Assembly (NCBI GenBank): GCA_030606485.1
Contig: JAUWGH010000006.1
Span: 199,966 to 263,965, forward strand
From: Promethearchaeota archaeon
Lineage (GTDB): Archaea; Asgardarchaeota; Lokiarchaeia; Sigyniarchaeales; SOKP01
Direction: 5' to 3'
DNA: 64,000 bases
Shown in pieces: positions 3,814-64,000 of this stretch; position 1 is the stretch's first letter; each line of letters starts with the position of its first letter. Below the pieces are notes generated by a model. That model saw only the letters and a program-made list of their open reading frames with translations, made no database searches and was not told the DNA's origin. A program made the position numbers and the translations under genes.

Positions 3814-3959
3814 TAATAATCCTTAAATTTTTCAATATTACTAAATATAATCCCATGAATATGGAGAATCTCTTAAAGAATCCGCATATTATACCACTTC
3901 TTCAGTTATTAGCATAAATAATCTCAGATCAATGAATACTTATAGTTAAAAAAAAACAT

Positions 3960-14287: not shown

Positions 14288-14498
14288 TTCAAAAACCTTT
14301 TTTGTTACCTTAAAATGCAATTAATGATTGATGATTAATAATAACTATGCAAGAACCGAAAAGACGAAAAAAACTCCCGAATCGCCAACAACTTCGCAAA
14401 ATGAGACCTTAAGAGTAAATATTGTGGTGACCTAATTAAAATCAAATAAATCAATCAAATATAAATATGAAGATAAAACATATCATTTCTGCAATACC

Positions 14499-45781: not shown

Positions 45782-45802
45782 CCTCTATTAATTTTAAATA
45801 TA

Positions 45803-48430
45803 TTATAACCATTTCTTTAAATCGGTTTTTGTTTTTGTTTTCCCAAATCTTGCTAATAAACCTTGCAAATAATTATGTTCTTTATGATTACTTGGAAAAA
45901 ATTCTGCTAGAGCTTGCCCTACTTTCCATATATTTTCACCATATTTTTGTTCGATTTTTTTCACTTCAATATCTAAGTTTTTATCATTATTCTTCCATAA
46001 AATTGCCAAGAAATGCAGATTAGCGATTAAAGTTTCTAGATTTTCTCTATTTTTTAATAGAAAATCTTCTCTAGCCTGATTGCTGGCTAACAATAATTTA
46101 AACTTTTTATCTTTTAATTTTATTAATTTTTTCTTTCTTAAATCGTTCAATTCTCCAACTCCAAAAGATTGCGCTAATTTTAAAGCATCATCAAGATCGA
46201 TTCCATTATTTCTAAAAAACCAGCACCAAATAATATAAAGATTTGTAATATCATCAATAGACTTGATTACATTTTTCTCTAAAACAGTACCGAGTAAAAA
46301 GTCATTGACTATTTTTCGAACTAAATCTAAAAACTTTGATACTTTTACTGTTTGACCTGTTTTTTGGCTAAGTACATTCTTATATCTTGTAAAGATGTTT
46401 AGAGAGAATCCAATTGCAGATATAAAAAAGTCAGCTCCATAGATTTCTAAATCAACTAATAAATTTTTCAATTTTTTTATTAATTCATTTTCTAAAATAT
46501 TTTTGAAATTGGTTTCAAAAAAGATTACTTCTTTCTTTTTGATTTTTTTAAATACTATTGCTATACTAGATGCTAAAGCAACCTTATTATCATCTCTTAT
46601 ACCTCCTTTTTTTTCAGTTTCAATTGGCCATGCTGCAGATATTGTAAGATTTGATTCAATTATAGCTATTATTAACGCCTCCCATGCATCAACGGATTTG
46701 TGTGTAAACATAATTACTCCTATTCCATTAGGTTTCAATACTCGATGAAATTCCTTTAAAACTTTTGTTAAAGAATCCTCGTAAAATCTTTTAGCCTTTT
46801 TTTTATCTCCTTCATGTCTAAATCTACTTTGGATTATTTCGTCCTCTTTAGGAGTTAATGAAAAAAGAAATAATTCAGGAAAAATAGATTCTAAACATCT
46901 TTTTAACCAAATGTAAAAAAAATCGGATGGATTAGCATATAGCATCGCATCATAATAAGGTGGATCTGTAATTAGTAAATCTATTGAACCATCATCAAAT
47001 TCTAAACTCATAGCATTTCCTTGTTTTATATTAACTGTGTTGGAAAAATTTAAATTGTTCTCTGAAATTTTATCTATAAAATCTAAATATCTAATAGGTG
47101 TCCCTGAAAAATCGGTAAAAGGGTTTAATTCGGGATAATTCCCCTTCATAAAAATGCCTGCTCTAGACCAAGTTTGAGCAATTATTTCATTACTATCATG
47201 CCAATGAGTGAATTTTGAATTATAATTAATGATTCGGGACAATATAAAAGATAAAAATAAAATAACTGCTTTACTAAATTCTTTATCATCATACGAATTC
47301 GTTATCTCTATTAATATTTTTTTTAATTCTTCTGTATATAAAATACAAAATAACAATTGCCTTTCATTGAAAAACTCTTTCCATTTTAAAATACCATAAT
47401 TTTGAACCTGCCATCTTCTAACTTCTTTAGGTAATTGTTCATTCGGAATTAATTCTTTAAAGCTTTCTAATTTTTCCTTTACTGAATTAAAAATCTCTTC
47501 ATCATTATCAGTAGATAATCTATATATTCTATCATTTGATTTTTCATCTTTTTCTATAACAATCAATAATCTATCCTCAATTTTTTTTTCTCTAAATCTA
47601 GCCATAACCTCCTCATTAGCTAAAGTTAAACCACAAGCGGGACAAGTAATTTTCCCTCTTGAAAAGATTTTATAATCTTTTGGTTCAAAATCAATTTCTT
47701 CATTTTTTTGAATTATAAAATTGATTTCATTATTTTCTTTGGCTTTTTTTATAACAGGCTTTAAATAAATTTTCTTATTTTCTTTGTTTGCTAATTTTAA
47801 ATTTGAAATCATAGGAATTTGGGCATTACAATTAGAATTCTTGCATTTAATTTGCTTTGCCCAAAGATATACTAAAATTGTATTTTGATTCACTGGATTG
47901 ATATAATAATTTTTTATTAGGCGTTTTAATTTATTTTTGAGAATTTTCCACCATTTTCTAATTTCTATGATTAAAGTTTTATTATACCTTTGGATATACT
48001 CAGTTGTAGCCTTACCAATTAGAACTGCTATCGGATTAAGATCTATAGCATAGCTTTTTAAACCAATTCTGGCAGCCTCTAATGGTATCGCAGTACCACC
48101 AGAAAAAGTATCCAGTAGCACAAATTTTCTTCCAGTATTTTTTTCAACGATTAAAGAATTTAATTTTTCTTTGAATGTAATCTGGTTTGGTAATCTTTTA
48201 AAATCGGAACAACTATCTATTATAAATTTTTTAATTCTTTTTCTATCTACCTTATTTATTGGGTAATCAAATAGACAAGATAAAATTAATGCTCTACAAA
48301 CTGATGTTGGTCTTCTTGCCCACCATACATGAATCCCTGATATATTATCAGGTGGAGTGGTTTTTTCTTTACTCCCTATAACAGATAACTCGACAATTGG
48401 AAATTCTTCTTCTATAAATCTCTTCACCAT
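45803..48430 (-). CDS. DUF1156 DNA methyltransferase
   Basis: The 875-residue protein opens with the DUF1156 signature: IHVWWARRPTSVCRALILSC near residue 28, then FVLLDTFSGGTAIPLEAARI as SAM-binding region. A Zn site with CKNSNC near 195 and CPACGLTLAN near 260 lies in the middle, and the catalytic motif LLITDPPYYDAMLY (DPPY, adenine or cytosine-N4 type) near residue 488. It would modify host DNA so that the paired helicase/ATPase genes act only on unmodified DNA. Stop and next start are spaced 21 bases from the DUF499 gene; the helicase gene ends 1 base upstream. Confidence 0.9.
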   Translation of the reverse strand: MVKRFIEEEFPIVELSVIGSKEKTTPPDNISGIHVWWARRPTSVCRALILSCLFDYPINKVDRKRIKKFIIDSCSDFKRLPNQITFKEKLNSLIVEKNTGRKFVLLDTFSGGTAIPLEAARIGLKSYAIDLNPIAVLIGKATTEYIQRYNKTLIIEIRKWWKILKNKLKRLIKNYYINPVNQNTILVYLWAKQIKCKNSNCNAQIPMISNLKLANKENKKIYLKPVIKKAKENNEINFIIQKNEEIDFEPKDYKIFSRGKITCPACGLTLANEEVMARFREKKIEDRLLIVIEKDEKSNDRIYRLSTDNDEEIFNSVKEKLESFKELIPNEQLPKEVRRWQVQNYGILKWKEFFNERQLLFCILYTEELKKILIEITNSYDDKEFSKAVILFLSFILSRIINYNSKFTHWHDSNEIIAQTWSRAGIFMKGNYPELNPFTDFSGTPIRYLDFIDKISENNLNFSNTVNIKQGNAMSLEFDDGSIDLLITDPPYYDAMLYANPSDFFYIWLKRCLESIFPELFLFSLTPKEDEIIQSRFRHEGDKKKAKRFYEDSLTKVLKEFHRVLKPNGIGVIMFTHKSVDAWEALIIAIIESNLTISAAWPIETEKKGGIRDDNKVALASSIAIVFKKIKKKEVIFFETNFKNILENELIKKLKNLLVDLEIYGADFFISAIGFSLNIFTRYKNVLSQKTGQTVKVSKFLDLVRKIVNDFLLGTVLEKNVIKSIDDITNLYIIWCWFFRNNGIDLDDALKLAQSFGVGELNDLRKKKLIKLKDKKFKLLLASNQAREDFLLKNRENLETLIANLHFLAILWKNNDKNLDIEVKKIEQKYGENIWKVGQALAEFFPSNHKEHNYLQGLLARFGKTKTKTDLKKWL

Positions 48431-48431
48431 T

Positions 48432-51400
48432 TCACTTAACCATGAATTTTTTCCAATTTTTTTCTAAGATGATATATCGTTTTGTTTCTAAAATTTTGTC
48501 GTATTCTAAATTTTCAGCAGGATTTTGAACCGGGAAGATCTCTGGGTTATCTAAAGCGTAATCAACTACATATAGCCAAAAATCATCACCAAATCTTCCT
48601 GCCATAAACCATTCATTAGGAGTTATAAAAACATCTCCGCTTTCTGAATGGCCTTTAACTTCAATATGTCTTATTTCCTCTGTTATTGGATCTTTAGATA
48701 AAATATCATAACCACATCTTGTTAAATGTACATCTTTAGGTTTTCTTCTATTATCCTTTTCGTACTGAATTACAACCTTCATTGCAGCATCATCTATTTT
48801 ATTTTTATCAATCCCGTTTTCATAAATAATTGCCTTTTCTTTATCGAATTCCTCTTTCCCTTCAATGATACTTTTTGGAATAACCATCAAAATCCCAAAG
48901 AGTTGAGGAACATTTAATGTTATTTCTTTTTCTTTTAGAATTTGGTCAAATTTTAGTTTTTTTTCATAGATTAATTTTTCTTTATTTCTTTTTTCATTAT
49001 TCAATGCTAATTCGTAATTTTCTCCAGCATCAATTTTTTCTTGATAGTGATATATTTTTGAGAGGCTTTCTGAAATCTTCAAATTCATATTATTTTCAAT
49101 TGCTTTTTTTTTAATTTCATAATTTTCATTTTTATTTTTATTCAATTTTTCAAAATATTCAATTCTCAGTATGTTTTCTACTTCATTTTTTATAGAATTC
49201 CTTTCATTCATTAACTTTTTAATTTCAGAAAAGATATTTGAATTGATAACTTGATCAAAATTATTATTAGGGATTAAATCCCAAATTATCAAAGGTGATA
49301 CTTCTCTAATTTCCCCCTGAACATTTTGGTAAAGAGATAAAATTTTTTCAGAGACAATATTGTTATTACCATCTGTAATCTTACTATTATAAAACCAAAT
49401 AAGGCCTATCATTTGATTGTCTGGATCAATAAAAACAGCACCTTTAGATAATTGATCTGAAAAATTCAAAATACATCCTTCTATTAATGATTCTAATAAG
49501 GGATGTCCAGGTGCAACATAAGTTTTCTTACTGTCTTTCTTCCAAATTTTTTTGTTAAAAGTTATATCTTTATATCGTTCTAATAAAGGTCCATATTGTA
49601 TCTCTAAATTATAATCCCATAAATCACAAATTTTATTTGGTAATATGTGGATTTTATTAGTAGTAATTTTACCGCCAAATGATAATAGTGCAATCTCGGT
49701 ATATTCTTTAATATATTCTGGCCACAATCTGAATTCATCGGACTTTCTTACATCTTCATTTAAAATAGATAAATCTAAATGTTTTTGAGCTAAACTTTCA
49801 GATGAGAGAAGTTTTTGTGCTCTTTCTATCAAATCGTTGTCCATTTGATCGATTTTTTCTAAGACATCATCCCATCCATTTGGGGCATTTAAAGCAATTT
49901 TAAATAATTGGTTTAATCCGACATCTGTAAAAATTTCACCAATTACATCAAAAACTCTATCACTACTTAATGCTTTTCTAATAGTATCAAGTTTCTCTAA
50001 TAAGCGTTCTAAAACTCTTCCTTCCATTGTATTTTTTGCTACACAATTATAAATATAACAATCATGTGTCTGCAAATATCTATGTATTCGCCCCATTCGT
50101 TGTTCTAATCGATTCGGATTCCATGGTATATCATAATTTACCATAAGCCAGCAAAATTGTAAATTAATTCCTTCGCCAGCTGCTTCTGTCGCAACCAATA
50201 TTTGTTTTTGGTTTCTAAATCTCTCTTCTGCATTTATTCTTTCATTCATATTCATCATTCCATGTATCGTTTCAACCTCAAAGCCCCAATCAATCAATTT
50301 TTCTTTTAAATATTCAAGAGTGTCTCTAAATTCGGTAAAAATAATTAATTTTTCCTTATTATCTCGAATTTCTCCTTTTAAAGTTTCCCACAGATTTTTT
50401 AGTTTTGCTTCCTCTCCAAGATTTTCTACCTCTTCAGTTAATTCTATTAGATCATTTAATTCCTTAATTTCATAATTCAATTCGTCAATATTTTTTGCCA
50501 TTGTTAAAACTTCTAGTTGTTTTTCTATTTCCCACCGTTCTTTTTCAGATTTTTCTTCAAAATCACCAAATTTAAGAGCTTCTTGTAATTCTCTTTCTTT
50601 TTCGAGTAGATCTCTTGTGCCAAAATTTTTAACAAAATCACTTTCTTTAATTTTCTCAAATTTGTTTTTACGTCTAATTAAAGATTTTTTAATTGACCGA
50701 ATACTCGAACACAATCTTCTCTGTAGAAGTATTAATGCAAAAGCTACAGTTTTCCTCCTTTCGCTTAAAGCCAAATTATAATTTGTTTTTACATAATTGC
50801 TTACTTTTTCATATAATTCTTTTTCTTTAGCTGACAACTCAAACTTTATTGTTTTTGGATATCTATCAGGAAATAAAGGTCTCTTTTTGAAATCAACCAT
50901 GTTCTCTTTTAACCTTCTGATAAAAATTTCATTCTGTTTACTTTCTAAGTTCTTTAATTGATTTTCTAATTGAAAATTTTTAGAGATCCCGAACATTTCT
51001 GGTTCTAGTAGAGAGAGAAAAAGTGTAAAATTATTCATATCCCCTCTGTGTGGGGTAGCTGTTAAAAAGAGTAAGTGAGCACAAATTTTAGATAATATTT
51101 CTCCCAGTAGATACCTTTGGGTTTTTACTATTTTCGACCCAGATAACTTTGCTGACATTTTATGTGCCTCGTCAACAATTATCAAATCCCATTTCTCATT
51201 CTTGATTTTATCCCTAACATCTGACTGCTTTAGAAAATCTATTGATGTTAATATCTGCGCTTCTTTTCTCCATACATTTTGGTTCCAAAAAGAATTTAAA
51301 TATTTACGATCAATGTGAGTAAAATTTTCTGAGAATTTCTCTTTTAATTCTCTCATCCAATTATTTATTAGATGTCCGGGAGATACAATTAAGATTTTTT

Positions 51401-51845
51401 TTATTAATTTTCTATATTTCAATTCTTTAAGTACTAATCCAGCCATAATTGTTTTTCCAGCCCCAGGATCGTCAGCTATTAAAAACCTTATATTGGGTCT
51501 TGGGAGTATGTAATTATAAACTGCTTCTAATTGATGAGGAAGAGGATCAATCTTAGAAATTCCTACAGCAAAAAAAGGGTTATATTCGTAATTTATTCGA
51601 ATTAATTTCCCTATTAGCACTAAAAAAAATTTAGTTGGATCTCCTTCAAAATCATTTTCTTCAAAAATTTCAATTTCATTATAACGATTTAATTTTATAG
51701 AATGCTCAAAATATTCTTTATTGCTAATATAATAACCTTGAATAAGAATGTGATCATCTTCATTTACTACTGAGATAATTTTAACAACTCCATCCCACCA
51801 GGGAGCTTTGACTTTTTTATTACTTAATTTTTTTAACTCTAAAAT
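48432..51845 (-). CDS. SNF2-type helicase with DUF3883 domain
   Basis: The protein of about 1137 residues has Walker A DDPGAGKTIMAGL, the DEAH-like VDEAHK box, LTATPHRGDMNN, and the second helicase lobe with TEAAGEGINLQF and QRMGRIHRYLQ. The C-terminal region near 1060 (IEVKGHSESGDVFITPNEW) is DUF3883, a PD-(D/E)XK-like fold. GTG at 51620 would cut off 75 conserved residues (VKAPWWDGVVKI, DFEGDPTKFF) that continue in frame upstream to 51845. There GGTGAT is followed five bases on by ATT, and no ATG, GTG or TTG fits. It is the first gene of the helicase/methylase/DUF499 operon. Confidence 0.9.
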   Translation of the reverse strand: MLELKKLSNKKVKAPWWDGVVKIISVVNEDDHILIQGYYISNKEYFEHSIKLNRYNEIEIFEENDFEGDPTKFFLVLIGKLIRINYEYNPFFAVGISKIDPLPHQLEAVYNYILPRPNIRFLIADDPGAGKTIMAGLVLKELKYRKLIKKILIVSPGHLINNWMRELKEKFSENFTHIDRKYLNSFWNQNVWRKEAQILTSIDFLKQSDVRDKIKNEKWDLIIVDEAHKMSAKLSGSKIVKTQRYLLGEILSKICAHLLFLTATPHRGDMNNFTLFLSLLEPEMFGISKNFQLENQLKNLESKQNEIFIRRLKENMVDFKKRPLFPDRYPKTIKFELSAKEKELYEKVSNYVKTNYNLALSERRKTVAFALILLQRRLCSSIRSIKKSLIRRKNKFEKIKESDFVKNFGTRDLLEKERELQEALKFGDFEEKSEKERWEIEKQLEVLTMAKNIDELNYEIKELNDLIELTEEVENLGEEAKLKNLWETLKGEIRDNKEKLIIFTEFRDTLEYLKEKLIDWGFEVETIHGMMNMNERINAEERFRNQKQILVATEAAGEGINLQFCWLMVNYDIPWNPNRLEQRMGRIHRYLQTHDCYIYNCVAKNTMEGRVLERLLEKLDTIRKALSSDRVFDVIGEIFTDVGLNQLFKIALNAPNGWDDVLEKIDQMDNDLIERAQKLLSSESLAQKHLDLSILNEDVRKSDEFRLWPEYIKEYTEIALLSFGGKITTNKIHILPNKICDLWDYNLEIQYGPLLERYKDITFNKKIWKKDSKKTYVAPGHPLLESLIEGCILNFSDQLSKGAVFIDPDNQMIGLIWFYNSKITDGNNNIVSEKILSLYQNVQGEIREVSPLIIWDLIPNNNFDQVINSNIFSEIKKLMNERNSIKNEVENILRIEYFEKLNKNKNENYEIKKKAIENNMNLKISESLSKIYHYQEKIDAGENYELALNNEKRNKEKLIYEKKLKFDQILKEKEITLNVPQLFGILMVIPKSIIEGKEEFDKEKAIIYENGIDKNKIDDAAMKVVIQYEKDNRRKPKDVHLTRCGYDILSKDPITEEIRHIEVKGHSESGDVFITPNEWFMAGRFGDDFWLYVVDYALDNPEIFPVQNPAENLEYDKILETKRYIILEKNWKKFMVK

Positions 51846-53094: not shown

Positions 53095-54972
53095 ATGACA
53101 ACTCCAACTACTAATTCAATAATTACCAAAGAAAATATGTTAGGTGTAATAAAAATTGCTGATTTAATTGTTAAAAATGGTTTAGAAGATGCAGTTCTTA
53201 GTAGAGGCGAAGAGGCTGAAAGAAAACGAGAACTTTATCATAATGAGATAAGGCCTAAAATTGAAGATTATATAAGAAAAAATAATAAAACTCCAAATCT
53301 CATTTTAAAAAAATTTTTGGATAATTATATCGATGAAAATAACCTAAAAGACGAAATTGAATCAATAGGCCGCCATTTTTATGGTCAAAAATTATATGCT
53401 TATACATGGGCATCAATTACAAAAATAGATCCCAGTATTCCTAATAAAAAATTTTCTTTTTATCCTCAATTATACATTCTAATTAATAAAGATGGTATTA
53501 AATTTGGTTTTGATTATGGTTCTTATATCTCTAATGATAATGAGAAAGTAAAAATAGGCAAAAACGATTCAGAAATACAAGAAAACATTGTTAATTTTAT
53601 AAATACCAATCCTGCTTTAAAAATATATAAAAAATCAAATCCTAGCATAGAACCAAATCCGGAGGACAAAATAACTCTAGTAACTCCAGAAAATTTTAAG
53701 GATAAATGGGATAAAAATATTCATATTATTAAGTTCATATCTGAGGAAAATATCCCAGATGATATCGAAGCAGAAATAAAATCAACATTTGATACTCTCC
53801 TCTTTATTTTTTCTAAAACCTCTTTATTAAATATTCAAATTGAGCAACCAGAAACAAACGGTGAGACACTGCCTGAACAACCAGTTGCTCCACGCATACT
53901 CACTTATGGTGATATAAGAGCATCACTAAATATTTTTCATGATAAAATAAATCAATTAGGAGAAATTGATCTAAAGAAAGAGAATTTATATTTTAAAAAT
54001 GAAAAATCAATATTAACACAAATTAAAATTGCATTAGAAAAGGGTAAAAATCTTATTCTTATCGGACCACCAGGTACCGGAAAATCGAAATTAGCAAAGG
54101 CTATTTGTGAATATATATGTGGTCCTAACATGTATGTTATGAGTACGGCAACATCAGATTGGTCTACATTTGATACGATTGGTGGATACAGACCAAATGT
54201 TGAAGGATTATTGGAGTTTTTTCCTGGAATTTTTCTTCAATGTTTTATGGATGGAAAAACACCAGTAAATAAATGGTTGATAATAGATGAAATAAATAGA
54301 GCGGATATTGATAAAGCCTTTGGAGCATTATTTTCTGCCTTAACAGGTGATAATATACTATTACCATTTGAAATTTCTAAACCAGGAGAAACAGGAGAAA
54401 AGATTAAGATTTTTGGAAAACCTATTGACAAAATAAAAATCAAACCAAATCACTTCATTATTCCCCAAGATTGGCGAATTATTGCAACAATGAATACTTT
54501 TGATAAGAGCTCTTTATATGAAATGAGTTATGCTTTTATGAGACGCTTTGCTTTCATTAATATTTCGATACCCTTTTTAACAAATGAGGCAGATTATGAA
54601 AATCTGATAACCTTTTACATTAAAATCTGGGAAAATATAACTGATAGTGATATCAATAGTGATGAGTCAAAAAAGGTAATTATAAAAAATTTAGCAAAGA
54701 TGTGGTATGAAATTAGTAAATATCGAACAATCGGTCCAGCAATAATCGAAGATATTTATAAATATTTGCTATCAGATAACTCTGATTATATTTCCCCTTT
54801 AGATCTTTATGTTTTACCTCAATTTGAAGGTTTATCTGAACAAGATCAAATAGAATTCATAAGAGAAATTCAGAAAAAGGATTTTATTGGTAATAACAAG
54901 AGTGATTTAGTAAAATTTGCATCAGAATACTTCGGTATAAACAAAAATTTATTAAAACCAGAAGTAAAATGA
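53095..54972 (+). CDS. McrB-like AAA+ NTPase
   Basis: The 625-residue protein has an N-terminal domain of about 270 residues that includes a beta-rich DNA-recognition-like part (FYPQLYILINKDGIKFGFDY), then a McrB-type AAA+ domain: Walker A LILIGPPGTGKSKLAKAI near residue 325, IGGYRPNVEGLLEFFPGIF, Walker B KWLIIDEINRADIDKAFGAL near 400, and sensor IIATMNTFDKSSLYEMSYAF with the RRF arginine finger. McrB proteins use GTP to move on modified or foreign DNA and drive a McrC nuclease; the next gene codes for such a nuclease. Complete. Confidence 0.9.
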   Translation: MTTPTTNSIITKENMLGVIKIADLIVKNGLEDAVLSRGEEAERKRELYHNEIRPKIEDYIRKNNKTPNLILKKFLDNYIDENNLKDEIESIGRHFYGQKLYAYTWASITKIDPSIPNKKFSFYPQLYILINKDGIKFGFDYGSYISNDNEKVKIGKNDSEIQENIVNFINTNPALKIYKKSNPSIEPNPEDKITLVTPENFKDKWDKNIHIIKFISEENIPDDIEAEIKSTFDTLLFIFSKTSLLNIQIEQPETNGETLPEQPVAPRILTYGDIRASLNIFHDKINQLGEIDLKKENLYFKNEKSILTQIKIALEKGKNLILIGPPGTGKSKLAKAICEYICGPNMYVMSTATSDWSTFDTIGGYRPNVEGLLEFFPGIFLQCFMDGKTPVNKWLIIDEINRADIDKAFGALFSALTGDNILLPFEISKPGETGEKIKIFGKPIDKIKIKPNHFIIPQDWRIIATMNTFDKSSLYEMSYAFMRRFAFINISIPFLTNEADYENLITFYIKIWENITDSDINSDESKKVIIKNLAKMWYEISKYRTIGPAIIEDIYKYLLSDNSDYISPLDLYVLPQFEGLSEQDQIEFIREIQKKDFIGNNKSDLVKFASEYFGINKNLLKPEVK

Positions 54973-55056
54973 GTTATTTTTCTTTAATTTCTTCCCAAAT
55001 CCTAATAAAAAGAGTAAAAACCGCAGAAGTATTTTTAATCTCAATAGGTAATCAAT

Positions 55057-56409
55057 TTGACTAAAGTTAGTAAAGACGATTTAATTGAGGAGATAGCATC
55101 CGATTTTATTGCTTATCTAAAAAACGGTGTGATTAATACCGAGTCAATTGTCAAAAGATTAGAACTTCAGCTTAATACTAACATTTTTGATTTTTATAGA
55201 TTATTGAGAATTCATTTTGTTTTATGTGATGATGTAATCAATTTTGTTGAAAAATTGCCTTTAAGTTTGAGGAGAATCAAAACTAACGTGAAAACTGAAA
55301 CTGAAGTATCACACGGGGAAGTACGCGGGAAAATCAATTGGGGTATTACCATAAAACATAGATTTAGTGAAGACCCGATAAGCAAAATTCTATTTGTTTG
55401 TGATAAACGGGAAAAAAATTACGATATACCAGAAAATATTATTCTTAAAAAGATTATACACCTAATAACTACGATTTTATCTAATGATTTAAAAGATGCC
55501 ATAAGTAAAAAGCCGGATTGGCTTAAGATATGGGTAAATAAAAAAGATTTAAAGAATAGAATCAACTTGTTATATGCAAAAAACATTTATTTGAAAAGAA
55601 TCAAACCAACCGATAAAAAAATTACCATGAGAATAATTAGTCGTTCTCTAAAATCGAGAAATCCTCTATATAGAGATGCTACCGCACTTCTTTTAAAATA
55701 TAAAAACTTAATGAATTTTAATATCGATAAAAAAGAAACAATTCAAATTTTCAAAAATACATTTATTGAACCAGAACCCGAGACTTTATTCGAATTATAC
55801 TGGATTATTAAAATTCTCAATGAATTTACTGATTATAAACCAGAATATCAATTAATAGAATACGGAAATAATATTATTGCTAAATGGGAACTGGAAGATT
55901 ATAAGTATATAATTTACCACAATTCCACAGGGAGTTCCAACATCTCTTTTTTCGAGGGAATTTTAGATACATATAAGGATTTGAAAAAGAAAAATAATTA
56001 TATCGGTAGAAAACTCAAAGCTGCAAAAAAATTTTTTCTTTTAACTTCTAGAAAGTCACGTTCGTTGTGGGAAGGAAGACCGGATATTCTTATTGAAAAA
56101 TATGATAAAAACAATAATCTAATTCTCATATTCTTGGGAGAAGTGAAATATACACAAAATTATGATTATGCTCTTGATGGTTTAATGCAATTACTCGAAT
56201 ATATTGCCTTGGTTAAGGAAAGTGAAAGCTATTTAAAAGACTATTATAGGATTTATAAAAAAGTTAGAAGTGATAAAAAGAATGTGATTGGTGGATTATT
56301 TATCGATAATATAAAAGATTTTAAAATTTCAGATGATAACCAAATTAGAATATATAAATACAAAAAGAATAAAACATACAACATTAAAGATTATATATTA
56401 AATTTTTAG
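55057..56409 (+). CDS. McrC-like PD-(D/E)XK nuclease
   Basis: The 450-residue protein has a nuclease core near its C-terminus: SLWEGRPDILIEKYDKNNN, then ILIFLGEVKYTQNYDYAL near residue 365, giving the D and E-x-K of PD-(D/E)XK folds. The first 340 residues are helical with basic stretches (RIISRSLKSRNPLYRDAT). The start is TTG at 55057 with GGTAATC before it. It follows the McrB-like gene by 84 bases. The pair would form a type IV-like restriction system. The N-terminal region is not like classical McrC, so the detail is uncertain. Confidence 0.78.
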   Translation: MTKVSKDDLIEEIASDFIAYLKNGVINTESIVKRLELQLNTNIFDFYRLLRIHFVLCDDVINFVEKLPLSLRRIKTNVKTETEVSHGEVRGKINWGITIKHRFSEDPISKILFVCDKREKNYDIPENIILKKIIHLITTILSNDLKDAISKKPDWLKIWVNKKDLKNRINLLYAKNIYLKRIKPTDKKITMRIISRSLKSRNPLYRDATALLLKYKNLMNFNIDKKETIQIFKNTFIEPEPETLFELYWIIKILNEFTDYKPEYQLIEYGNNIIAKWELEDYKYIIYHNSTGSSNISFFEGILDTYKDLKKKNNYIGRKLKAAKKFFLLTSRKSRSLWEGRPDILIEKYDKNNNLILIFLGEVKYTQNYDYALDGLMQLLEYIALVKESESYLKDYYRIYKKVRSDKKNVIGGLFIDNIKDFKISDDNQIRIYKYKKNKTYNIKDYILNF

Positions 56410-56542
56410 AGCTAAATATCAATATGAAATCCCAATTTTTTAATATTTAATTAAAATGTAAATCAATTCAATTGAAAATATAATTGATAAATACATTTTT
56501 AATTTTAAAAAAAGATTTATAACCTGTTTGGAAAAAAATTAG

Positions 56543-57220
56543 GTGAAAGATAAAAATATGCTAAGTAAAACAATATTTAATCAACCTTATTTTCTAACAT
56601 TAAAAGAATTAAGATTTTGTGGAAGAATTGTTAATAATCTAAAAAATATTTTGATACAAAAATATCAAATTCAAAATTTTAAAGAAATTATTAAAAATCT
56701 ATTAGATTTAAATCTAATATATAAATCCCTTGATAGCGATAAAACGGGAGAACAAAAAGTATCTTTATATGTATTGACTCAAAAAGGAAGATATTTATTA
56801 GAATCCATATATGTCCTCGAAGATATATCATCGGGAAAAATCAATATAAATGAATACCTCTCCCTATTAAAACCTCAATTAAAGAATTCTATCTTTCTAA
56901 GTTTTGAGAACATCTGGACTATAATAAAAGAAAAAATTAAACCAGGAGTGATCTTATATTCTTTGAAACAAAGTAAGTCAAATGAAATTATAGCAATTAG
57001 TGAATTAGGTATTACGGTTAAAACTGAAAGAGGAACTGCCCTAATATATAAAATAGATATTAGAAAGGCTTGGTGTAATTTGGTTTTAGATGGCGTGTTA
57101 ATTCGAGATGAACATGAAAAATCTACTTATCGAAGCTCTTTTATGTTAATGTTATTTTCACAATTTGATTTTGTAATAGTAATTAATAAACCTCGCCTCT
57201 CCATAAAATTATCATTTTAA
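56543..57220 (+). CDS. winged-helix protein with an extra C-terminal domain, unknown
   Basis: The 225-residue protein has a winged-helix part in its first 90 residues (LTLKELRFCGRIVNNLKNI, then VSLYVLTQKGRYLLESIYV) and a C-terminal mixed alpha-beta part with TVKTERGTALIYKIDIRKAW and YRSSFMLMLFSQFDFV. The start is GTG at 56543. It is the last gene of the rightward group after the McrBC-like pair, separated by 133 bases; it could regulate the group. I do not recognise the C-terminal domain. Confidence 0.55.
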   Translation: MKDKNMLSKTIFNQPYFLTLKELRFCGRIVNNLKNILIQKYQIQNFKEIIKNLLDLNLIYKSLDSDKTGEQKVSLYVLTQKGRYLLESIYVLEDISSGKININEYLSLLKPQLKNSIFLSFENIWTIIKEKIKPGVILYSLKQSKSNEIIAISELGITVKTERGTALIYKIDIRKAWCNLVLDGVLIRDEHEKSTYRSSFMLMLFSQFDFVIVINKPRLSIKLSF

Positions 57221-57628
57221 ACGAAAATAATCATATGATTTTAAGTACACAATTTTTAGAATTGTGGAATTGATTGATGTAATAAATTAGTCTTGCTAAT
57301 CCTAAAGTAGGAAAAAACGTATTAAATATGATAATTAATCCAATTGAAAATAGAGAAGATTTAAATTATTTTAATTTTAATTGGAGTATCTTCTTTCTAT
57401 TATGACAAATATATAAATAGAACTTTATTGATAATTTAAATATAGAATTAATGGAATTATTAACAGAATCCATCGCATTTTAAAAAAGATAAGAATCAAT
57501 CTAACTCTTAATTAAGGAGATTTTTTTATTATATAATTATAAATATGATAATACGTGAAATTAACCGTTTCACGATCATTAAATTTTTTAGGTTTAATTA
57601 AATTTTAGAGACAATTTTCGTGATCTTA
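57221..57628. other. gap between convergent genes, with a hairpin
   Basis: About 400 bases between two gene ends. Apart from the hairpin at 57554-57574 nothing is recognised. AATCCAATTGAAAATAGAGA at 57336 resembles AATCCAATTGTAAATAGAGA at 39137, also just behind a gene end; this short match may be a remnant of a shared sequence. Confidence 0.5.
57554..57574. terminator. hairpin between convergent genes
   Basis: CGTGAAA-TTAACCG-TTTCACG forms a perfect 7-base stem with a 7-base loop, 55 bases behind the end of the leftward SIR2 gene and 334 bases behind the rightward winged-helix gene. AT-rich runs lie on both sides. It may end transcription from both directions or serve as a protein site. Confidence 0.45.
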
Positions 57629-58810
57629 TTATTCATACACCTGTAAAAATTCATTTATATCCTTACATAATGTAGGAGCTTTATCAAAATGTGTAAAGTC
57701 CACCGCAATTTGAGCTGCTGATTTATCAGGATTGACAATAATTAACTCTTCCAATTTATTTTTAGAAAAAACATCTAAAAAAAGCTTTTTAATTGAAAAA
57801 TCAGTTTGAGAGAATGAATATCCAATTATTATAAGTTGTTTACATTGCTCAAGATATAATTTTGCTAAATTCCAAAGCTCTTTAAAAGGATTTTGTTGAA
57901 TTAAATCATTTTTGTAAAGGACTGGAGTGATTATTAATGGATCTAACATCCAACCATTTAAATCAGGAGGTTCATTAATCCACCAAAACCCATTGATTAA
58001 AACAATTTGATTTATTAATTTTTGATCTTTATTTTTTGGTGTTGAATACTTATAAATAGGTAATACTTTAAACCAATTTAAAGAACCATGAAGTTTTAAA
58101 ATTTTCCATTCGTATAATGCATTATCTGGTATATTATAAAACTTATTTCGATCAATATATATTGGAGTTCCTGATTGGTAAAGTTGTACTTTGTTAAATT
58201 TAATTCCATAACTTAAGGGGCGATTCCAATTAAAATGACTATAAGTTATTAATTCATTTGGGATTTTGCTTAATCTCTTCCTAAGATCAATATCATAAAA
58301 AGATTTAGGTATTTCTGATCTAGGCATAGAAACAAGTTCAATTAATGCTTCTAGAATACAGTCATAATTAAAAGTAATTATGTTTGGCTTTTTCCTCCAA
58401 ATCAATTTAGTAAATACTCTTAAATCCTCCGATTTATAGCAATGTATTTCAAATTCTTTTAAAAATGAAGCCAAAAGATTTTTCAATTGAAAATTAATAT
58501 TTACTAATTGTAAATGTTCTTTAGGGTTTGTGGCATAATCAATTTCATTAATTTTTAATTGAAGGAAAGTGAAAATATCTTCCAAATTAAAGGGATTTTT
58601 AAGAAGATCATCTTTAGATTTCTTCCAATGATCTTGGATAAAGGTATAAAGAGGTTTCAATTTCTCAAAGTAAGCTTTATCTGTAAATTTTTCACTTTTA
58701 AGGATTGTTTGAAAAAAATTATTAGCTAGAGGTGGTTTTAATCCATTCCAATCCTCAACAGATTGGTTGAATCCCGCTCCTAATAAAAATAAGGTATTAG
58801 TATTAGTCAT
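57629..58810 (-). CDS. SIR2-domain protein (defence-type NADase/NAD-binding)
   Basis: The 393-residue protein has SIR2-like NAD-binding motifs: LFLLGAGFNQSVEDWN at the start, IITFNYDCILEALIE near residue 147, ILKLHGSLNWFKVLP near 235 and LIIIGYSFSQTDFSIKKLF near 332. SIR2 domains of this kind act as NAD-degrading effectors in several phage defence systems. It lies at the end of the leftward cluster with the radical SAM and TcmP-like genes. No STAND or Argonaute partner is next to it, so the sensor must be another gene of the cluster. Confidence 0.87.
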   Translation of the reverse strand: MTNTNTLFLLGAGFNQSVEDWNGLKPPLANNFFQTILKSEKFTDKAYFEKLKPLYTFIQDHWKKSKDDLLKNPFNLEDIFTFLQLKINEIDYATNPKEHLQLVNINFQLKNLLASFLKEFEIHCYKSEDLRVFTKLIWRKKPNIITFNYDCILEALIELVSMPRSEIPKSFYDIDLRKRLSKIPNELITYSHFNWNRPLSYGIKFNKVQLYQSGTPIYIDRNKFYNIPDNALYEWKILKLHGSLNWFKVLPIYKYSTPKNKDQKLINQIVLINGFWWINEPPDLNGWMLDPLIITPVLYKNDLIQQNPFKELWNLAKLYLEQCKQLIIIGYSFSQTDFSIKKLFLDVFSKNKLEELIIVNPDKSAAQIAVDFTHFDKAPTLCKDINEFLQVYE

Positions 58811-58884
58811 AATTTTATTTTAATTCATATTTAATTTCATATCAACTTATGTTTAAAATTTGATTTTTAAAACTAAAATTTAAT

Positions 58885-59496
58885 TTAAATCCATTTTTTT
58901 GTAAATTTTGAGTAGTTATATTGATCTATTATTTTAATAAGACTTTTCTCTGATAAATCAATATAACCTTTCACTTTTTCCGCTAATTTTTTTATCATTT
59001 TTGAAAAACTGATATATTTTTCTGCTGGATTCTCTTTATAGGAACAATTATAAGCTTTTGCTATACTTACATCCCAAAGGGGAAAGAATTTGGGAGCTAA
59101 AAGATGTAAAGCTTTAGCAGCAGAAACAGGACTTTTTTTAACTTTACCTTCATTAATTATAATTTTAGAAGCTTCAAGTAGTTCATTAAACAAATCTGTT
59201 ATGCATTCATTATCAAGGTCTGAAAATGTTAATATATCCCTCTTTCTAAAATCCTCCAAGAGGTTTAAATTTTTTTTTATAAATCTCTCGATTTCATCAA
59301 TATCTAGACTTGAATACCTATAGAAAGCTTGATTCCAGGTTAATAATAATACTCCAAGAGCATCAGCCATTTCAGTTGGATTCCCCCAAAAGTGGTTTAT
59401 AAGAAATGATGATACTTTATACATTGAATCTCGTTTTTCATTATCTTCAAATTTTTTGATACCTTCTCGAAAATCATTTTCTTCTGGAATTTCCAT
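58885..59496 (-). CDS. unknown helical protein of the TcmP/SIR2 cluster
   Basis: The protein of 203 residues is almost all helical. The best-defined segment, near residue 125, reads SAAKALHLLAPKFFPLWD and then VSIAKAYNC, a pattern (pocket lined by H, P, F, W, D) that resembles DNA glycosylase-like or DUF6308-like folds, but I cannot give a firm family. The ATG at 59496 is preceded by GATGAT; a second in-frame start lies nine bases upstream. It is 17 bases behind the TcmP-like gene and 74 bases ahead of the SIR2 gene. Confidence 0.55.
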   Translation of the reverse strand: MEIPEENDFREGIKKFEDNEKRDSMYKVSSFLINHFWGNPTEMADALGVLLLTWNQAFYRYSSLDIDEIERFIKKNLNLLEDFRKRDILTFSDLDNECITDLFNELLEASKIIINEGKVKKSPVSAAKALHLLAPKFFPLWDVSIAKAYNCSYKENPAEKYISFSKMIKKLAEKVKGYIDLSEKSLIKIIDQYNYSKFTKKWI

Positions 59497-59522
59497 TTTA
59501 ATCATCTTAAATAATGCTTAAA

Positions 59523-60545
59523 TTAAAAATTTCTTAAGTTTTTATATGTGAATCTATCTATCGTTTTAGATTTGCCCATAGCGATATCCCACATACTCTT
59601 AACATCCTCATCTGTCCAATATTTAAATCTTTTATTCCTGTAATGTTTAATCATCTCTAACCAATCTCCACTAACATCTTTTCTACAGCAAAACAATAGC
59701 GTATAGTAAAATCCTGATTTTGAAGCAATTTTTAATTTTTCGATCCTTCCGAATTTAATTTTTCTCAATTGTTCAACATATAAGTCGCTTAGTTCATTTC
59801 TCTTTGTATCAGGAGGGACTACTCTGCCAAAGAATCTTAGAACTTTTTTTGGATGTAGTTTTAAATTTCTAGCAATTCCTGCATCTTGAAAGGTTATAAT
59901 TATATCCCCAAAATCATGAATCTCTTTAATATTTCTTATTGTTTCATAATAAATGTCCATTCCTTGATTATCAATAACCATTAAATAATTAAAAGATTCA
60001 TCTTTCTTGCGAATCTCTTTTAAAATGTCTAAAACCCATTGATTTGAATCAATTTTATTTTTGTTAGTATTAATCTCTATATCAATATGATTTTGGATTG
60101 CGTTATTGAATGCTTTAAGTCTGTTATATAACACAGTTCTCTTATCTTGTTTAATATCATTGGAATAAATTTTGGAAAAACCATTATGCTTTTTATGAGA
60201 TATTAATGCAGCACTTATTGATGTTCCTGGAAAAATAAATTGATCTTTCCCAGCCTGTTTAGTTACTTTATTCATGCCAAAGCTACTTAACAGATCAATA
60301 AAATATAATTTAATATACGATCTTTTTCCTAAAATAGTCAAATATTCATCAATATAATGTCTAAATACAATCTGTTTTGTAGCCATCCACCAGCCTGCTT
60401 TATCATTTTTTTTATAAAAATGATTAGGATTTGATAAAGAGAAATTAGGAATTTTTCTTAAAAAGTTAGAATCTTCTATTAAATTTTTAATATTTTCTAA
60501 GTGAAATTCAAATTTAGTTTGGTCACTCAATTCGGGAAACGACAT
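59523..60545 (-). CDS. three-Cys-motif partner protein (TcmP-like)
   Basis: The 340-residue protein fits the TcmP family (TIGR04474): KQIVFRHYIDEYLTILG near residue 57, YIKLYFIDLLSSFGMN near 80, then FPGTSISAALISHKKH and YLMVIDNQGMDIYYETI near 190. Members occur beside a radical SAM three-Cys-motif protein, exactly as here (the gene at 60624, 78 bases upstream). A methyltransferase-like or nuclease-like Rossmann core has been suggested for the family; the function is not known. The end of the protein is basic. Confidence 0.83.
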   Translation of the reverse strand: MSFPELSDQTKFEFHLENIKNLIEDSNFLRKIPNFSLSNPNHFYKKNDKAGWWMATKQIVFRHYIDEYLTILGKRSYIKLYFIDLLSSFGMNKVTKQAGKDQFIFPGTSISAALISHKKHNGFSKIYSNDIKQDKRTVLYNRLKAFNNAIQNHIDIEINTNKNKIDSNQWVLDILKEIRKKDESFNYLMVIDNQGMDIYYETIRNIKEIHDFGDIIITFQDAGIARNLKLHPKKVLRFFGRVVPPDTKRNELSDLYVEQLRKIKFGRIEKLKIASKSGFYYTLLFCCRKDVSGDWLEMIKHYRNKRFKYWTDEDVKSMWDIAMGKSKTIDRFTYKNLRNF

Positions 60546-60623
60546 AATATAAATTAGAATAATTCGTATATTTGAGGTTTTTATCTCTTATTATTTGCAT
60601 AGATTAAATTAATATTTATTTTT

Positions 60624-61394
60624 TTAGATACTGGAAGATATGGAGTTAAATATACTATCCTTAATTCTTAGAAAAGAAGGATCATATTTTTTTGCGCGTT
60701 CTAATATTTTAAGTAAGTTTTCTTTGGAATTAATTTCTTTAATTGAGTCATAAATTATTTTATCTCTTAAATTTATATTTTTTCTGGAGATATAATTCAT
60801 TTTACCGATCCAAATTGATTCTGTTACATATGGAATTAATGTATCAACTAAATCAAAAGGATTATTATCTAAATAGGGTTCAATTGAGATACTAGTTTTA
60901 TATCCTTGGCTATAAGAAAATTTTAAAGCCTTAAATCTTTCCTCGAATTTTGGCGCTCCAGGCTCCCAAAACTTAAGTATTTCATTGTTTAATGAGGTAA
61001 TAGTAAATCTAAATTGAATCTGGTCTTTAAATTTTTGAAATTCTATACAAATTTTTTTAATACAATCAAATTTTGGCTTAGTAGTTATTAAAATCTCGTT
61101 TTGAGATTCAAGTAATTTTCTTAAGACAGTTAAACAATTATCTAAACTTTCTCTCGTAATATCATGAGAAGTAGGAAACATAACTCGACCTTGTCGCTTA
61201 TGATATCCCTTATCAATATATTTTTGGTTCGGTTCCATTATTTTCCATGTTTCTTCTGTCTTTCGATTAAAACGAATAGCCATTTTTTTTGCATAGCAAT
61301 ATCGGCAATTGTTTGAGCATCCAACATAACAGTTCACGTTACTATCGGCCCATTCTTTAGTTCCTAAAGTTATTTTTCGAGTTTTAGTCTCCAT
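60624..61394 (-). CDS. radical SAM three-Cys-motif protein (partner of TcmP)
   Basis: The 256-residue protein opens ITLGTKEWADSNVNCYVGC with the radical SAM cluster CSNNCRYCYAKKMA (CX3CX2C) near residue 25. Later parts, ILITTKPKFDCIKKICIEF near 110, FRFTITSLNNEILKFWEPG near 128 and TSISIEPYLD near 168, follow the family of Gp37/Gp68-like and spore photoproduct lyase-like radical SAM proteins. It should bind a 4Fe-4S cluster and SAM and might modify or repair nucleic acid. The gene heads the group with TcmP, the 203-residue protein and SIR2. Confidence 0.87.
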   Translation of the reverse strand: METKTRKITLGTKEWADSNVNCYVGCSNNCRYCYAKKMAIRFNRKTEETWKIMEPNQKYIDKGYHKRQGRVMFPTSHDITRESLDNCLTVLRKLLESQNEILITTKPKFDCIKKICIEFQKFKDQIQFRFTITSLNNEILKFWEPGAPKFEERFKALKFSYSQGYKTSISIEPYLDNNPFDLVDTLIPYVTESIWIGKMNYISRKNINLRDKIIYDSIKEINSKENLLKILERAKKYDPSFLRIKDSIFNSISSSI

Positions 61395-61592
61395 TATGTT
61401 TTATTTTTATTCTCAAATTATTTAAAAGAAAATTTAGTTAAAAATTGAAATACTTACCCGATTTTTTAAAATTGATAATATGTAGATATTCTCACTTTCA
61501 TAATATATTCACTAATACTAGTGATAATTTTCTAATTATAATTTTCAAATTAAAACATACTGAATTAAATAAAATGAGTTATTTCACGGTGA

Positions 61593-62306
61593 TTATAAGA
61601 CAAATGTGGTTGATCCAGATTGATTTGGATTTTTCATTTTTAATTTATATCCAAGTTTTACCATTTCATTAATGAATAGTTCAGATCTAAAATAATTTTT
61701 TAATATTTGACCATGTCGATGTCCATGAATAATTTTAATTTCTCCGCCTTTTCTAATTCTGCATTCCTCAAGATGGTTAATTATTTCCTCTTTTGCATCC
61801 CATAATGTTAATCCATGCAAGTTACATGTAATATTTTTAGGGTTATAATAATCTTTTTCTATAATTTGTTCTATTTTGTCTGAATACTTTATTGCTTTAT
61901 TTATTTTAGGCCAATCTGTCGGAGTTTTTTCTTTAAATTTATCCGTTATCCTTAGTGTTTTTCTTTTGTTTTTCATACTTTTCTTTTTTTGATCAAAAAT
62001 ATTCCACGATCTTGGATCTAATTTATTATATATTTTTTTTTCTTTAGTTTTTTTTAATTTTTCTTTAGTTTTTTTTAATTTTACATTATGTTTTGCAATC
62101 ATATGTTGGTTAAGGTCTGTATCATTAACAAATTTTTTTTCACATTTAGGACATATTATTCCATGTTCAGCCCTCCTATGCTTTCGTAGTTTTTTTTTAG
62201 TAGCAAATTTTTCTTTGCAATTAGGACATATAAAATTTTGAATATTTTTATTTACTTTTTGTTGTTCTCTATTCTTTTCTTTATAACTGGAACGTTTTCT
62301 AGTAAC
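61593..62306 (-). CDS. C2H2 zinc finger-Smr domain protein, start codon not canonical
   Basis: The open frame encodes 237 residues with two C2H2 zinc fingers (C27, C30, H43, H48 and C52, C55, H68, H73; CPNCKEKF and CPKCEKKF), a Lys-rich linker, and a C-terminal Smr domain (CNLHGLTLWDAKEEIINHL, then KIIHGHRHGQILKNYF and a STTFVL end). Smr domains are DNA or RNA endonucleases. The first legal ATG (62102) lies inside zinc finger 2 and would destroy both. GAGGTGAT at 62311-62318 is a perfect ribosome binding site, but at start distance only GTT (62306) is in frame. It lies 22 bases behind the CARF-wHTH gene. Confidence 0.82.
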   Translation of the reverse strand, partial: VTRKRSSYKEKNREQQKVNKNIQNFICPNCKEKFATKKKLRKHRRAEHGIICPKCEKKFVNDTDLNQHMIAKHNVKLKKTKEKLKKTKEKKIYNKLDPRSWNIFDQKKKSMKNKRKTLRITDKFKEKTPTDWPKINKAIKYSDKIEQIIEKDYYNPKNITCNLHGLTLWDAKEEIINHLEECRIRKGGEIKIIHGHRHGQILKNYFRSELFINEMVKLGYKLKMKNPNQSGSTTFVL

Positions 62307-62328
62307 TTTTATATCACCTCATAGAAAA

Positions 62329-62997
62329 TTAAATAAACCATTTACCTTTATCAGTAATTTCAAAAACTCTTTCTTTTCCCTTTTTTTCACTCGAAATTTC
62401 AATTAAGCCTATCTCCCTCAAATTTTTGAGGTATCTCGAAATCATTCCTTTACTTAAACCAGTTTCTTTTATTATCTTCTTTTGTGATAGATTTTTAGAA
62501 TTTATTAAAAATAAGAGATTTTTTAATGGCTCCGATAACGGAACAGGCAAATATATTTCGATAGGTTTTATAGGTTTGTTTAAATCAGAGTCTTTTGGGA
62601 TATAATAAAAAATATCAATTAAATTCTCAACAGTGGCTAAAAAATATGCTGAGAATCTCCATAATTCTAATCCAGAAGTTGCATTAAAGTAAATCCTGTA
62701 TTCTAATCTTTTTAGTTCTCTTGTCTTTTCTTTTATAATGTGTATAAATTCTAAAACATCTCTAGTCTTAATTCTAATTATCTCAATTTTTTTAATCAAT
62801 TTAGGTTCCAATTTTCTTTTATCAGATAAACTATAGCTTGGAATTAATTCTTGTTTGAGTTTATTTGCCAAATCAATATATTCCTTCTGAGGGGTTGTTA
62901 AAATTATTAAATAATTCCAATCATAATATAATAGACCTTCTTTAATCCAGTCTGGATTCATTCCTAAAGGAGCAATATGACAAATTATGTTTTGCAT
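62329..62997 (-). CDS. CARF-domain winged-helix regulator (Csa3-like)
   Basis: The protein of 222 residues has an N-terminal CARF-like Rossmann domain: IICHIAPLGMNPDWIKEG at the start, LIILTTPQKEYIDLANKL, and the ligand-loop strand YRIYFNATSGLELWRFSAYF near residue 105, close to the N-x-TGG loop of Csa3. The C-terminal winged helix is KKIIKETGLSKGMISRYL and LIEISSEKKGKERVFEITDK. Csa3 proteins bind cyclic oligoadenylates and control CRISPR or toxin genes. No cas gene is in the window. The ATG at 62997 is used; a palindrome (63011-63029) lies just upstream. Confidence 0.8.
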   Translation of the reverse strand: MQNIICHIAPLGMNPDWIKEGLLYYDWNYLIILTTPQKEYIDLANKLKQELIPSYSLSDKRKLEPKLIKKIEIIRIKTRDVLEFIHIIKEKTRELKRLEYRIYFNATSGLELWRFSAYFLATVENLIDIFYYIPKDSDLNKPIKPIEIYLPVPLSEPLKNLLFLINSKNLSQKKIIKETGLSKGMISRYLKNLREIGLIEISSEKKGKERVFEITDKGKWFI

Positions 62998-63010
62998 TCT
63001 TCTCAAAAAA

Positions 63011-63048
63011 GTTTATTAATATAATAAACCTTTATAAAATTAATAAAC
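63011..63048. promoter_or_regulatory. palindromic operator between the CARF-wHTH gene and the HEPN-like gene
   Basis: GTTTATTA-ATA-TAATAAAC is a perfect inverted repeat with 8-base arms at 63011-63029, followed by a third half-site TAATAAAC at 63041-63048. It starts 14 bases before the ATG of the CARF-wHTH gene and is 77 bases before the start of the divergent gene. It is the only site of its kind seen here and is best explained as the binding site of the CARF-wHTH protein. Confidence 0.7.
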
Positions 63049-63124
63049 TTAATTAATAAAAATTAATTATTTTTTAAAAATATTTCGTATTAATTATAAA
63101 AATAATAGAAGGAGGTATTCAATA

Positions 63125-64000
63125 ATGGATTTACCAAAAATTATTTTTTCAAATCCTATTTCTAGAGATTTAAAGTCAAAAATTGAAGTGTCAAGTAGAG
63201 ATTTTGTCGAATTGATCAAAAATGATAAATTAAATATCGTATTCAGTGCTTGTACGCCACATTATCCACAGCGAAAAGAAAATTTCTTATATACTGTTAA
63301 AGAAGGATTTTTTATTATTGCTAATAATAGAGAGTTGAAATATTTAGAACAATTCTATGAAATTCAAAAAGGTAATTTTCCTAGTTTTTACGCATATTTG
63401 GAAGCTATGTATTATAATATTGAAAATTATGAGAGTTATCAAGCTTTTAAAGAAAGTACATTTTGGAGTCATGAACTTGTTTATTATGATAATTTCTTAG
63501 ACGCCAAAAAAAAAGGTTTTACTAATAAGCAGGAATATGAATACGCAAAAGTTCAAGGGATTAAAAATAAACAGGAATTAGATGATTATAGGAATTCAGG
63601 TATTTCTGTATATTCAGAATATTTAAACTTTAAAAAAGGGGGATTCAAAGACAAAAATGAGTTTGGTAAAGCAATAACGTTAGGTTTTCAAACTGCAGAA
63701 GAATATCATGAATTTCTTGCCAATCGATATAAATCTCGTTTAAATAAAATTAATGAGATTAATGAAGATTTAAATTCAGCATATGAATCAAATCGATTTG
63801 AAGAATTCATTAGATTAAAATTTCTATCAATTGAAAAAATGGCTGATTTATTATATTTAAAGTTATTTGAAAAAGAATTAACAAAAGAAAATGATTTGCA
63901 ATTAGAAGATATTTTCAAAAAAATAGAAGAAAAATTAAATGAAAAATTCGTTGATTATGAAGAATTAAAAAATTGGCGAGTGATTCGGAATAAAATTGCA
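63125..64000 (+). CDS. repeat protein with a HEPN-like end, 3' part outside the window
   Basis: The open frame of 292 codons runs off the right edge. Residues about 125-195 carry two to three copies of an about 20-residue pattern of the type GFTNKQEYEYAKVQGIKN, GISVYSEYLNFKKGGFKD and ITLGFQTAEEYHEF. The last visible residues, DYEELKNWRVIRNKIA, match the helix of HEPN domains that carries the R-N/x4-H motif; the His would lie outside the window. GGAGGT at 63110 precedes the ATG. It is divergent from the CARF-wHTH gene and shares the palindrome, so it may be an RNase effector under cyclic-nucleotide control. Confidence 0.72.
   Translation, partial: MDLPKIIFSNPISRDLKSKIEVSSRDFVELIKNDKLNIVFSACTPHYPQRKENFLYTVKEGFFIIANNRELKYLEQFYEIQKGNFPSFYAYLEAMYYNIENYESYQAFKESTFWSHELVYYDNFLDAKKKGFTNKQEYEYAKVQGIKNKQELDDYRNSGISVYSEYLNFKKGGFKDKNEFGKAITLGFQTAEEYHEFLANRYKSRLNKINEINEDLNSAYESNRFEEFIRLKFLSIEKMADLLYLKLFEKELTKENDLQLEDIFKKIEEKLNEKFVDYEELKNWRVIRNKIA

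What the first reader, a model, noticed from the sequence alone, without database searches (positions are those of the whole stretch)
61593..62306. C2H2 zinc fingers fused to an Smr domain in an archaeon
Two classic C-X2-C-X12-H-X4-H fingers precede a Lys-rich linker and an Smr domain. The fingers are outside the region that a simple start-codon rule would annotate, so the fusion is easily missed. Zinc fingers could direct the Smr nuclease to a nucleic acid.
Basis: seen in the sequence. Interest (0 to 1): 0.7.

Follow-up and report, generated by a model that had tools for sequence, protein, structure and literature searches.

The report
Zinc fingers joined to Smr domain
A Lokiarchaeal gene encodes one protein with two virus-like DNA/RNA-binding zinc fingers joined to an Smr (nuclease-type) domain; the join is real, absent from most of its short stand-alone relatives, and two other Lokiarchaea carry different joins of the same two domain types.

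Summary
One open frame (62318-61593, 241 codons) encodes two exact C-X2-C-X12-H-X4-H fingers, a basic helical linker and an Smr domain. Both pass Pfam cut-offs, codon bias runs in one frame throughout, and AlphaFold shows both folds. No ATG/GTG/TTG precedes the fingers. An SD (GAGGTGAT) lies just before an ATA at 62312, and other genes of this genome apparently start at ATT.

Asgard archaea have a patchy Smr family (37 of 228 genomes; a 2011 review says archaea lack Smr). Most members are 80-105 aa, stand-alone and fingerless. The window's fusion was found only in its own genome. Two other Lokiarchaea have different C2H2-Smr proteins (G023; Harpocratesius FW102, reversed order), and other members carry cysteine-rich zinc-binding-like motifs. 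The window's finger pair resembles, in sequence and in its 3-residue inter-finger spacing, the fusellovirus B-129-type pair, not a Krueppel array.

Most likely it is a finger-tethered, nucleic-acid-binding Smr protein in a defence island. Nuclease activity is uncertain, because the DxH motif reads N-L-H. Neither the fusion nor its pairing with the CARF gene is conserved in the genus. New variant of a known kind; the function is inferred.

The parts
61593..62318 (-). whole open frame, 241 codons plus stop: C2H2-C2H2 / basic linker / Smr
62313..62320 (-). Shine-Dalgarno-like GAGGTGAT directly before the frame's likely start
   Evidence: sequence; a similar motif followed by an ATG lies after the CARF gene's relative in G002
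62310..62312 (-). likely non-canonical start codon ATA (protein then 239 aa)
   Evidence: inference: no ATG/GTG/TTG upstream of 62102; apparent AUU starts elsewhere in the genome
62163..62228 (-). C2H2 finger 1 (C-X2-C-X12-H-X4-H)
62088..62153 (-). C2H2 finger 2, only 3 residues (GII) after finger 1, as in a fusellovirus B-129-type protein
61839..62087 (-). basic linker (28 K+R in 83 residues), predicted mostly helical, lower confidence in its middle
61596..61838 (-). Smr domain; motifs N166-L-H168 (DxH position) and H198-G-H-R-H-G203
62329..63006 (-). context: CARF-winged-helix regulator gene ending 16 nt before the likely start; same direction

Best explanation
This is a real single-chain fusion protein of about 239 residues. 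A member of the small Asgard Smr family has gained an N-terminal pair of C2H2 fingers of the archaeal-virus type and a basic helical linker. It most likely works as a nucleic-acid-binding Smr protein: fingers and basic linker hold DNA or RNA and bring the Smr domain to it. The Smr domain then binds, and perhaps cleaves, the strand. It is made from a non-canonical AUA start behind a strong Shine-Dalgarno site, and sits in a defence island as a lineage-specific accessory gene. Shown: the fused frame, its domains and its rarity. Inferred: start codon, source of the fingers, nucleic-acid binding, tethering, any cleavage, and a role in defence.
For: Both domains pass curated cut-offs in one frame; one-frame codon bias across all segments; predicted fold contains C2H2 fingers and an Smr domain (2zqe, T. 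thermophilus MutS2 Smr, probability 1.00, TM 0.61 by target length); basic throughout, pI 10.1. Two other Lokiarchaea carry differently built C2H2-Smr proteins: G023, 224 aa with GTG start, finger directly before Smr; G042 = Harpocratesius repetitus FW102, 542 aa, Smr first and three fingers last. Other family members carry cysteine-rich zinc-binding-like motifs: CxxC pairs after Smr in G011, G033, G161; C-x2-C-x11-C-x3-C before Smr in g37 genomes. Finger pair close to fusellovirus zinc-finger proteins and 2wbt B-129, with identical 3-residue spacing to the one aligned. Non-canonical starts: a PfkB-like gene has ATT where same-genus genomes at 87-92% identity have ATG; HmaA in this window begins at ATT by profile position. 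Defence genes surround the locus.
Against: No genome searched has the same fusion, so selection on the joined form could not be tested. The catalytic D of DxH is N here (also in the g2 stand-alone Smr proteins), so cleavage may be lost. The ATA lies only 4 nt after the GG of the SD. An independent short Smr made from ATG 61976 or 62102 is not excluded. C2H2 fingers can also bind protein. The excess of AUH codons behind SD motifs is weak statistically (6 slots against 3.6 expected).
Confidence: 0.5

Rival explanations
1. Collided-ribosome mRNA endonuclease: the protein works like SmrB or Cue2, with the fingers and basic linker as the ribosome- or RNA-binding extension, in archaeal no-go decay.
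For: Smr domains of SmrB, Cue2 and MutS2 act at collided ribosomes, with DxH and HGxG facing the mRNA in SmrB and MutS2 (PMC10897456). The NCBIfam SmrB model aligns weakly to residues 79-208 (21.6 bits, far below its cut-off of 128).
Against: Asgard Smr genes are patchy (37 of 228 genomes, many of them incomplete) and show no obvious conserved neighbourhood (by reading), unlike a core quality-control factor; DxH reads NLH in this copy.
Confidence: 0.2
2. Defence effector: a finger-guided DNA or RNA nuclease co-expressed with the CARF regulator, acting against viruses or plasmids.
For: Sits among Hma, McrB-like, SIR2-like, PDC-M41A/B-like and CARF genes; the CARF-wHTH gene stops 16 nt before the likely start on the same strand; fingers resemble viral ones.
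Against: The CARF orthologue in the same-genus genome G002 (66% identical) is followed by a different tiny ORF, so the pair is not conserved there; PADLOC gives no convincing model for the fusion; NLH active site.
Confidence: 0.2
3. Two neighbouring genes, a C2H2 protein and a stand-alone Smr, merged only on paper by an assembly indel in the A-rich linker, or a decaying pseudogene.
For: The linker holds long A runs and a short tandem repeat; most relatives are stand-alone Smr proteins; no canonical start.
Against: One frame keeps positive codon bias through the linker with no switch; all zinc ligands and the conserved Smr residues except D are intact; C2H2-Smr proteins occur in two other genomes, one of them assembled as a single contig.
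Confidence: 0.06
4. Truncated protein starting at ATG 62102 or 61976, so that the fingers are not made.
For: First canonical starts; relatives lack the fingers.
Against: 62102 lies inside finger 2 and 61976 in the linker, and neither has an SD within 20 nt upstream; the upstream 72 codons are coding-like; relatives start near the Smr domain, not at these points.
Confidence: 0.07

Closest known systems
Asgard stand-alone Smr proteins (family 3 type, 80-105 aa; e.g. G002, G024, G025, G029)
   Same: Smr domain 42-52% identical to these; H168, H198, G199, G203 shared
   Different: no fingers, no basic linker; most keep D in DxH
E. coli SmrB / yeast Cue2 / MutS2 Smr domains
   Same: Smr fold (2zqe match); H of DxH and the HG dipeptide
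   Different: NLH in place of DLH; HGHRHG in place of HGxG; C2H2 fingers in place of the SmrB extension, CUE domains or KOW
Fusellovirus B-129-type zinc-finger proteins (PDB 2wbt; SSV Ragged Hills zinc-finger protein)
   Same: tandem C2H2 pair with 3-residue spacing, 41% identity over 58 residues to the Ragged Hills protein
   Different: viral proteins of 129-150 aa without Smr
G023 (224 aa) and Harpocratesius repetitus FW102 (542 aa) C2H2-Smr proteins
   Same: C2H2 finger(s) and an Smr domain in one chain
   Different: other domain order, number of fingers and linker; FW102 Smr is divergent (IIYG for IIHG) and found only with the Asgard profile

Membership tests
Smr domain (PF01713) | profile match over curated cut-off | tested here: met
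   26.4 bits against 25.7; 28.6 in the genome search
Smr domain (PF01713) | Smr fold | tested here: met
   AlphaFold model, Smr region blocks pLDDT 84-95; Foldseek hit 2zqe, probability 1.00, TM 0.61 by target length, E 0.014
Smr domain (catalytic) | DxH motif | tested here: not met
   N166-L-H168: H kept, D replaced by N
Smr domain (families 1 and 3) | HGxG motif | tested here: inconclusive
   HGHRHG; H198, G199, G203 invariant in the 13-sequence alignment
zf-C2H2 (PF00096) | C2H2 profile match over cut-off with all four zinc ligands | tested here: met
   38 bits against 25.2, two stretches; ligands in the sequence
Krueppel-type DNA-binding finger array | TGEKP-type linker, 7 residues from H to next C (general knowledge) | tested here: not met
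   3-residue spacing GII
SmrB/Cue2 collision nucleases | binding to collided ribosomes and mRNA cleavage | not testable with these tools
   needs biochemistry
CARF-linked effector | conserved pairing with the CARF gene | tested here: not met
   CARF orthologue in G002 has another downstream gene; one comparison only

The most novel reading that the evidence does not exclude
Lokiarchaea have repeatedly joined C2H2 fingers to Smr domains, making single-chain analogues either of the eukaryotic pairing of a C2H2 collision sensor with an Smr nuclease (Hel2/ZNF598 with Cue2, from general knowledge) or of a natural zinc-finger nuclease used in antiviral defence.
Probability: 0.12. Interest if true: 0.8.

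Novelty: new variant of a known kind. Interest (0 to 1): 0.47.

Why it matters
A 2011 review states that Smr domains occur in almost all organisms except archaea (PMC3200294); here a patchy Smr family is present in Asgard archaea, the archaea held to be closest to eukaryotes (general knowledge), several members joined to C2H2 fingers or to cysteine-rich zinc-binding-like motifs. If the fingers choose the substrate, these proteins would be a small natural system for studying how an Smr domain is targeted. The missing canonical start, with supported AUU starts in the same genome, means that ordinary gene callers would truncate such genes.

Tried and rejected
Frame shift or chimera in the linker: rejected on one-frame codon bias. 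Single origin of the C2H2-Smr fusions: the Smr tree is too weak to decide (82 columns, long branches), so independence rests on their different domain order and linkers. Viral or plasmid carriage of the fusion: two viral-contig scans, phages and plasmids found no fusion; the listed phage hits cover the fingers only. Functional link to CARF: not conserved in G002. Conserved neighbourhood of stand-alone Smr: none apparent by reading eight loci. Rfam: nothing at 60400-64000. Literature: no paper found joining Smr domain with Asgard archaea or Lokiarchaeota; a search on Smr domain, C2H2 and archaea gave three papers, none about archaeal proteins by title and abstract start (not read).

Full report
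What is there. The feature is on the minus strand. After a TGA at 62321-62319 an open frame of 241 codons runs to the stop at 61595-61593. It reads: 30 residues, finger 1 (residues 31-52), GII, finger 2 (56-77), a basic linker (78-160) and an Smr domain (161-241). Pfam finds two zf-C2H2 stretches (38 bits) and Smr (26.4 bits, cut-off 25.7). The strict finger pattern occurs nowhere else in 849 kb of this genome in six frames and not at all in 4.2 Mb of shuffled sequence. A profile search of the whole genome finds one other C2H2 locus over the cut-off, on C6.

Is it one protein? The 72 codons before the first ATG (62102) have the codon usage of real genes only in this frame, and 30-codon sliding windows show no frame switch through the linker into Smr. 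An AlphaFold model from 13 sequences (mean pLDDT 79.6) has confident fingers and Smr joined by long helices; Foldseek matches finger proteins and the T. thermophilus MutS2 Smr domain 2zqe (probability 1.00, TM 0.61 by target length; no hit has E below 0.001). The model's pTM is 0.42, so the relative placement of the domains is not known.

The start codon. No ATG, GTG or TTG precedes 62102; in 450 kb of this genome only 3 of 263 long frames lack one in their first 45 codons. GAGGTGAT (62320-62313) is followed at once by ATA (62312). Two other genes of this genome give homologous support for starts outside ATG/GTG/TTG: a PfkB-like gene has ATT, behind AGGTGA, exactly where same-genus relatives at 87-92% identity have ATG; and HmaA in this window, read from ATT at 51845, aligns from profile position 17 at residue 16, whereas its first canonical start aligns only from position 86. 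The count of AUH behind SD motifs is not significant by itself. In G002 the CARF gene's relative is followed by AAGGAGGTGATAAGATG and a tiny ORF, so the SD may be inherited from an older arrangement; that is inference.

Relatives. An alignment of Asgard Smr domains finds matches in 37 of 228 genomes of the phylum. Most are stand-alone frames of about 80-105 codons whose start, where canonical, lies at or near the Smr domain; they lack fingers and linker. Full-length searches with each of the three C2H2-Smr proteins found no second genome with the same fusion: 58 relatives for the window's protein, the whole phylum set for the other two. G023 (224 aa, GTG start): one clear C2H2 finger immediately before Smr, the finger below the Pfam cut-off (17.8 bits), Smr above it. 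G042, by contig name and length Candidatus Harpocratesius repetitus FW102: 542-codon frame with divergent Smr, coiled-coil-like middle (by eye) and three C2H2 stretches scoring 48.6 bits together, above cut-off; its Smr is seen only with the Asgard profile and has Y for the H of HG.

Further zinc-type additions. Members in G011, G033 and G161 carry two CxxC motifs after Smr; members in g37 genomes carry C-x2-C-x11-C-x3-C before it (three sequences read there, two more grouped with them by their Smr domains). These were read by eye and are zinc-binding-like, not over any Pfam cut-off: the best were Zn_ribbon_19 at 22.2 of 30.8 bits in one C-terminal member and PLATZ at 18 of 25 in one N-terminal member, scanned for three proteins only.

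Origin of the fingers. The best viral family is phrog_9259, zinc-finger domain protein (1.3e-9), and the named relatives in the phage collection are fusellovirus proteins; the Ragged Hills one is 41% identical over 58 residues with the same 3-residue gap between fingers. Among solved structures the nearest archaeal-virus one is 2wbt, B-129; designed and animal finger proteins score as well or better. The spacing is not that of Krueppel arrays. Descent from a virus is therefore a lead, not shown.

Function. SmrB, MutS2 and Cue2 Smr domains work at collided ribosomes, with DxH involved in cleavage in SmrB (PMC10897456). This copy has N-L-H, so cleavage may be weak or lost while binding remains; the g2 stand-alone proteins share N at this position. 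Neighbours include a CARF-wHTH gene, a radical SAM gene and a PDC-M41A-like gene, SIR2-like, McrB-like and Hma genes. This makes an accessory or defence role likelier than core translation quality control, but nothing tested links the protein to defence.

Verdict. The finding is correct as an observation and partly correct as an interpretation. It is a fusion found in one genome only, in a patchy Asgard Smr family that is joined to C2H2 fingers in three different layouts.

Noticed in passing
window 51845-51843 (-); G000:C1:395965 (-); window 29404 (+); L148:4007: Likely AUU start codons. PfkB-like gene has ATT where close relatives have ATG; HmaA starts at ATT by profile position; an ORF at 29404 (HD-domain-like by eye) and the L148 Smr show the same pattern with less support.
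   Followed up: partly
window 42905-51845 (-): Hma defence system (HmaA helicase, HmaB methylase, HmaC ATPase); HmaA would be cut by 75 codons with ordinary start rules.
   Followed up: partly
window 53095-64000, continuing in L071: Defence island: McrB-like ATPase, SIR2-like, PDC-M41A/B-like pair, CARF-wHTH; further genes look like HEPN and a NERD-type helicase by eye.
   Followed up: partly
L217 (G002:C168) about 3700-3910 (-): The CARF orthologue (66% identical) is followed by a strong SD, ATG and a tiny ORF (MGKSKMNSKAARRIQSHSDKTSKNQDFKARAQRAAAKNEGKK) instead of the fusion.
   Followed up: no
L091 4563-14442 (G023:C48): The G023 fusion lies near a TGT-family protein (Pfam, above cut-off), an Elf1-like zinc-ribbon protein (28.5 bits, below the 29.8 cut-off), and frames that look HerA-like and Rad50-like by eye; perhaps a mobile or defence region.
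   Followed up: partly
L023 (G039), L028 (G023:C38): Other Lokiarchaeal frames hold arrays of 8 and 9 C2H2 fingers.
   Followed up: no
window 2363-2857 and 17020-17514 (-); 13790-14320 and 24299-24796 (-): Two pairs of near-identical ORFs within the window, seen in the translations only.
   Followed up: no
window about 62035-62080 (-): Short tandem repeat with long A runs encoding LKKTKEKLKKTKEK in the linker.
   Followed up: no
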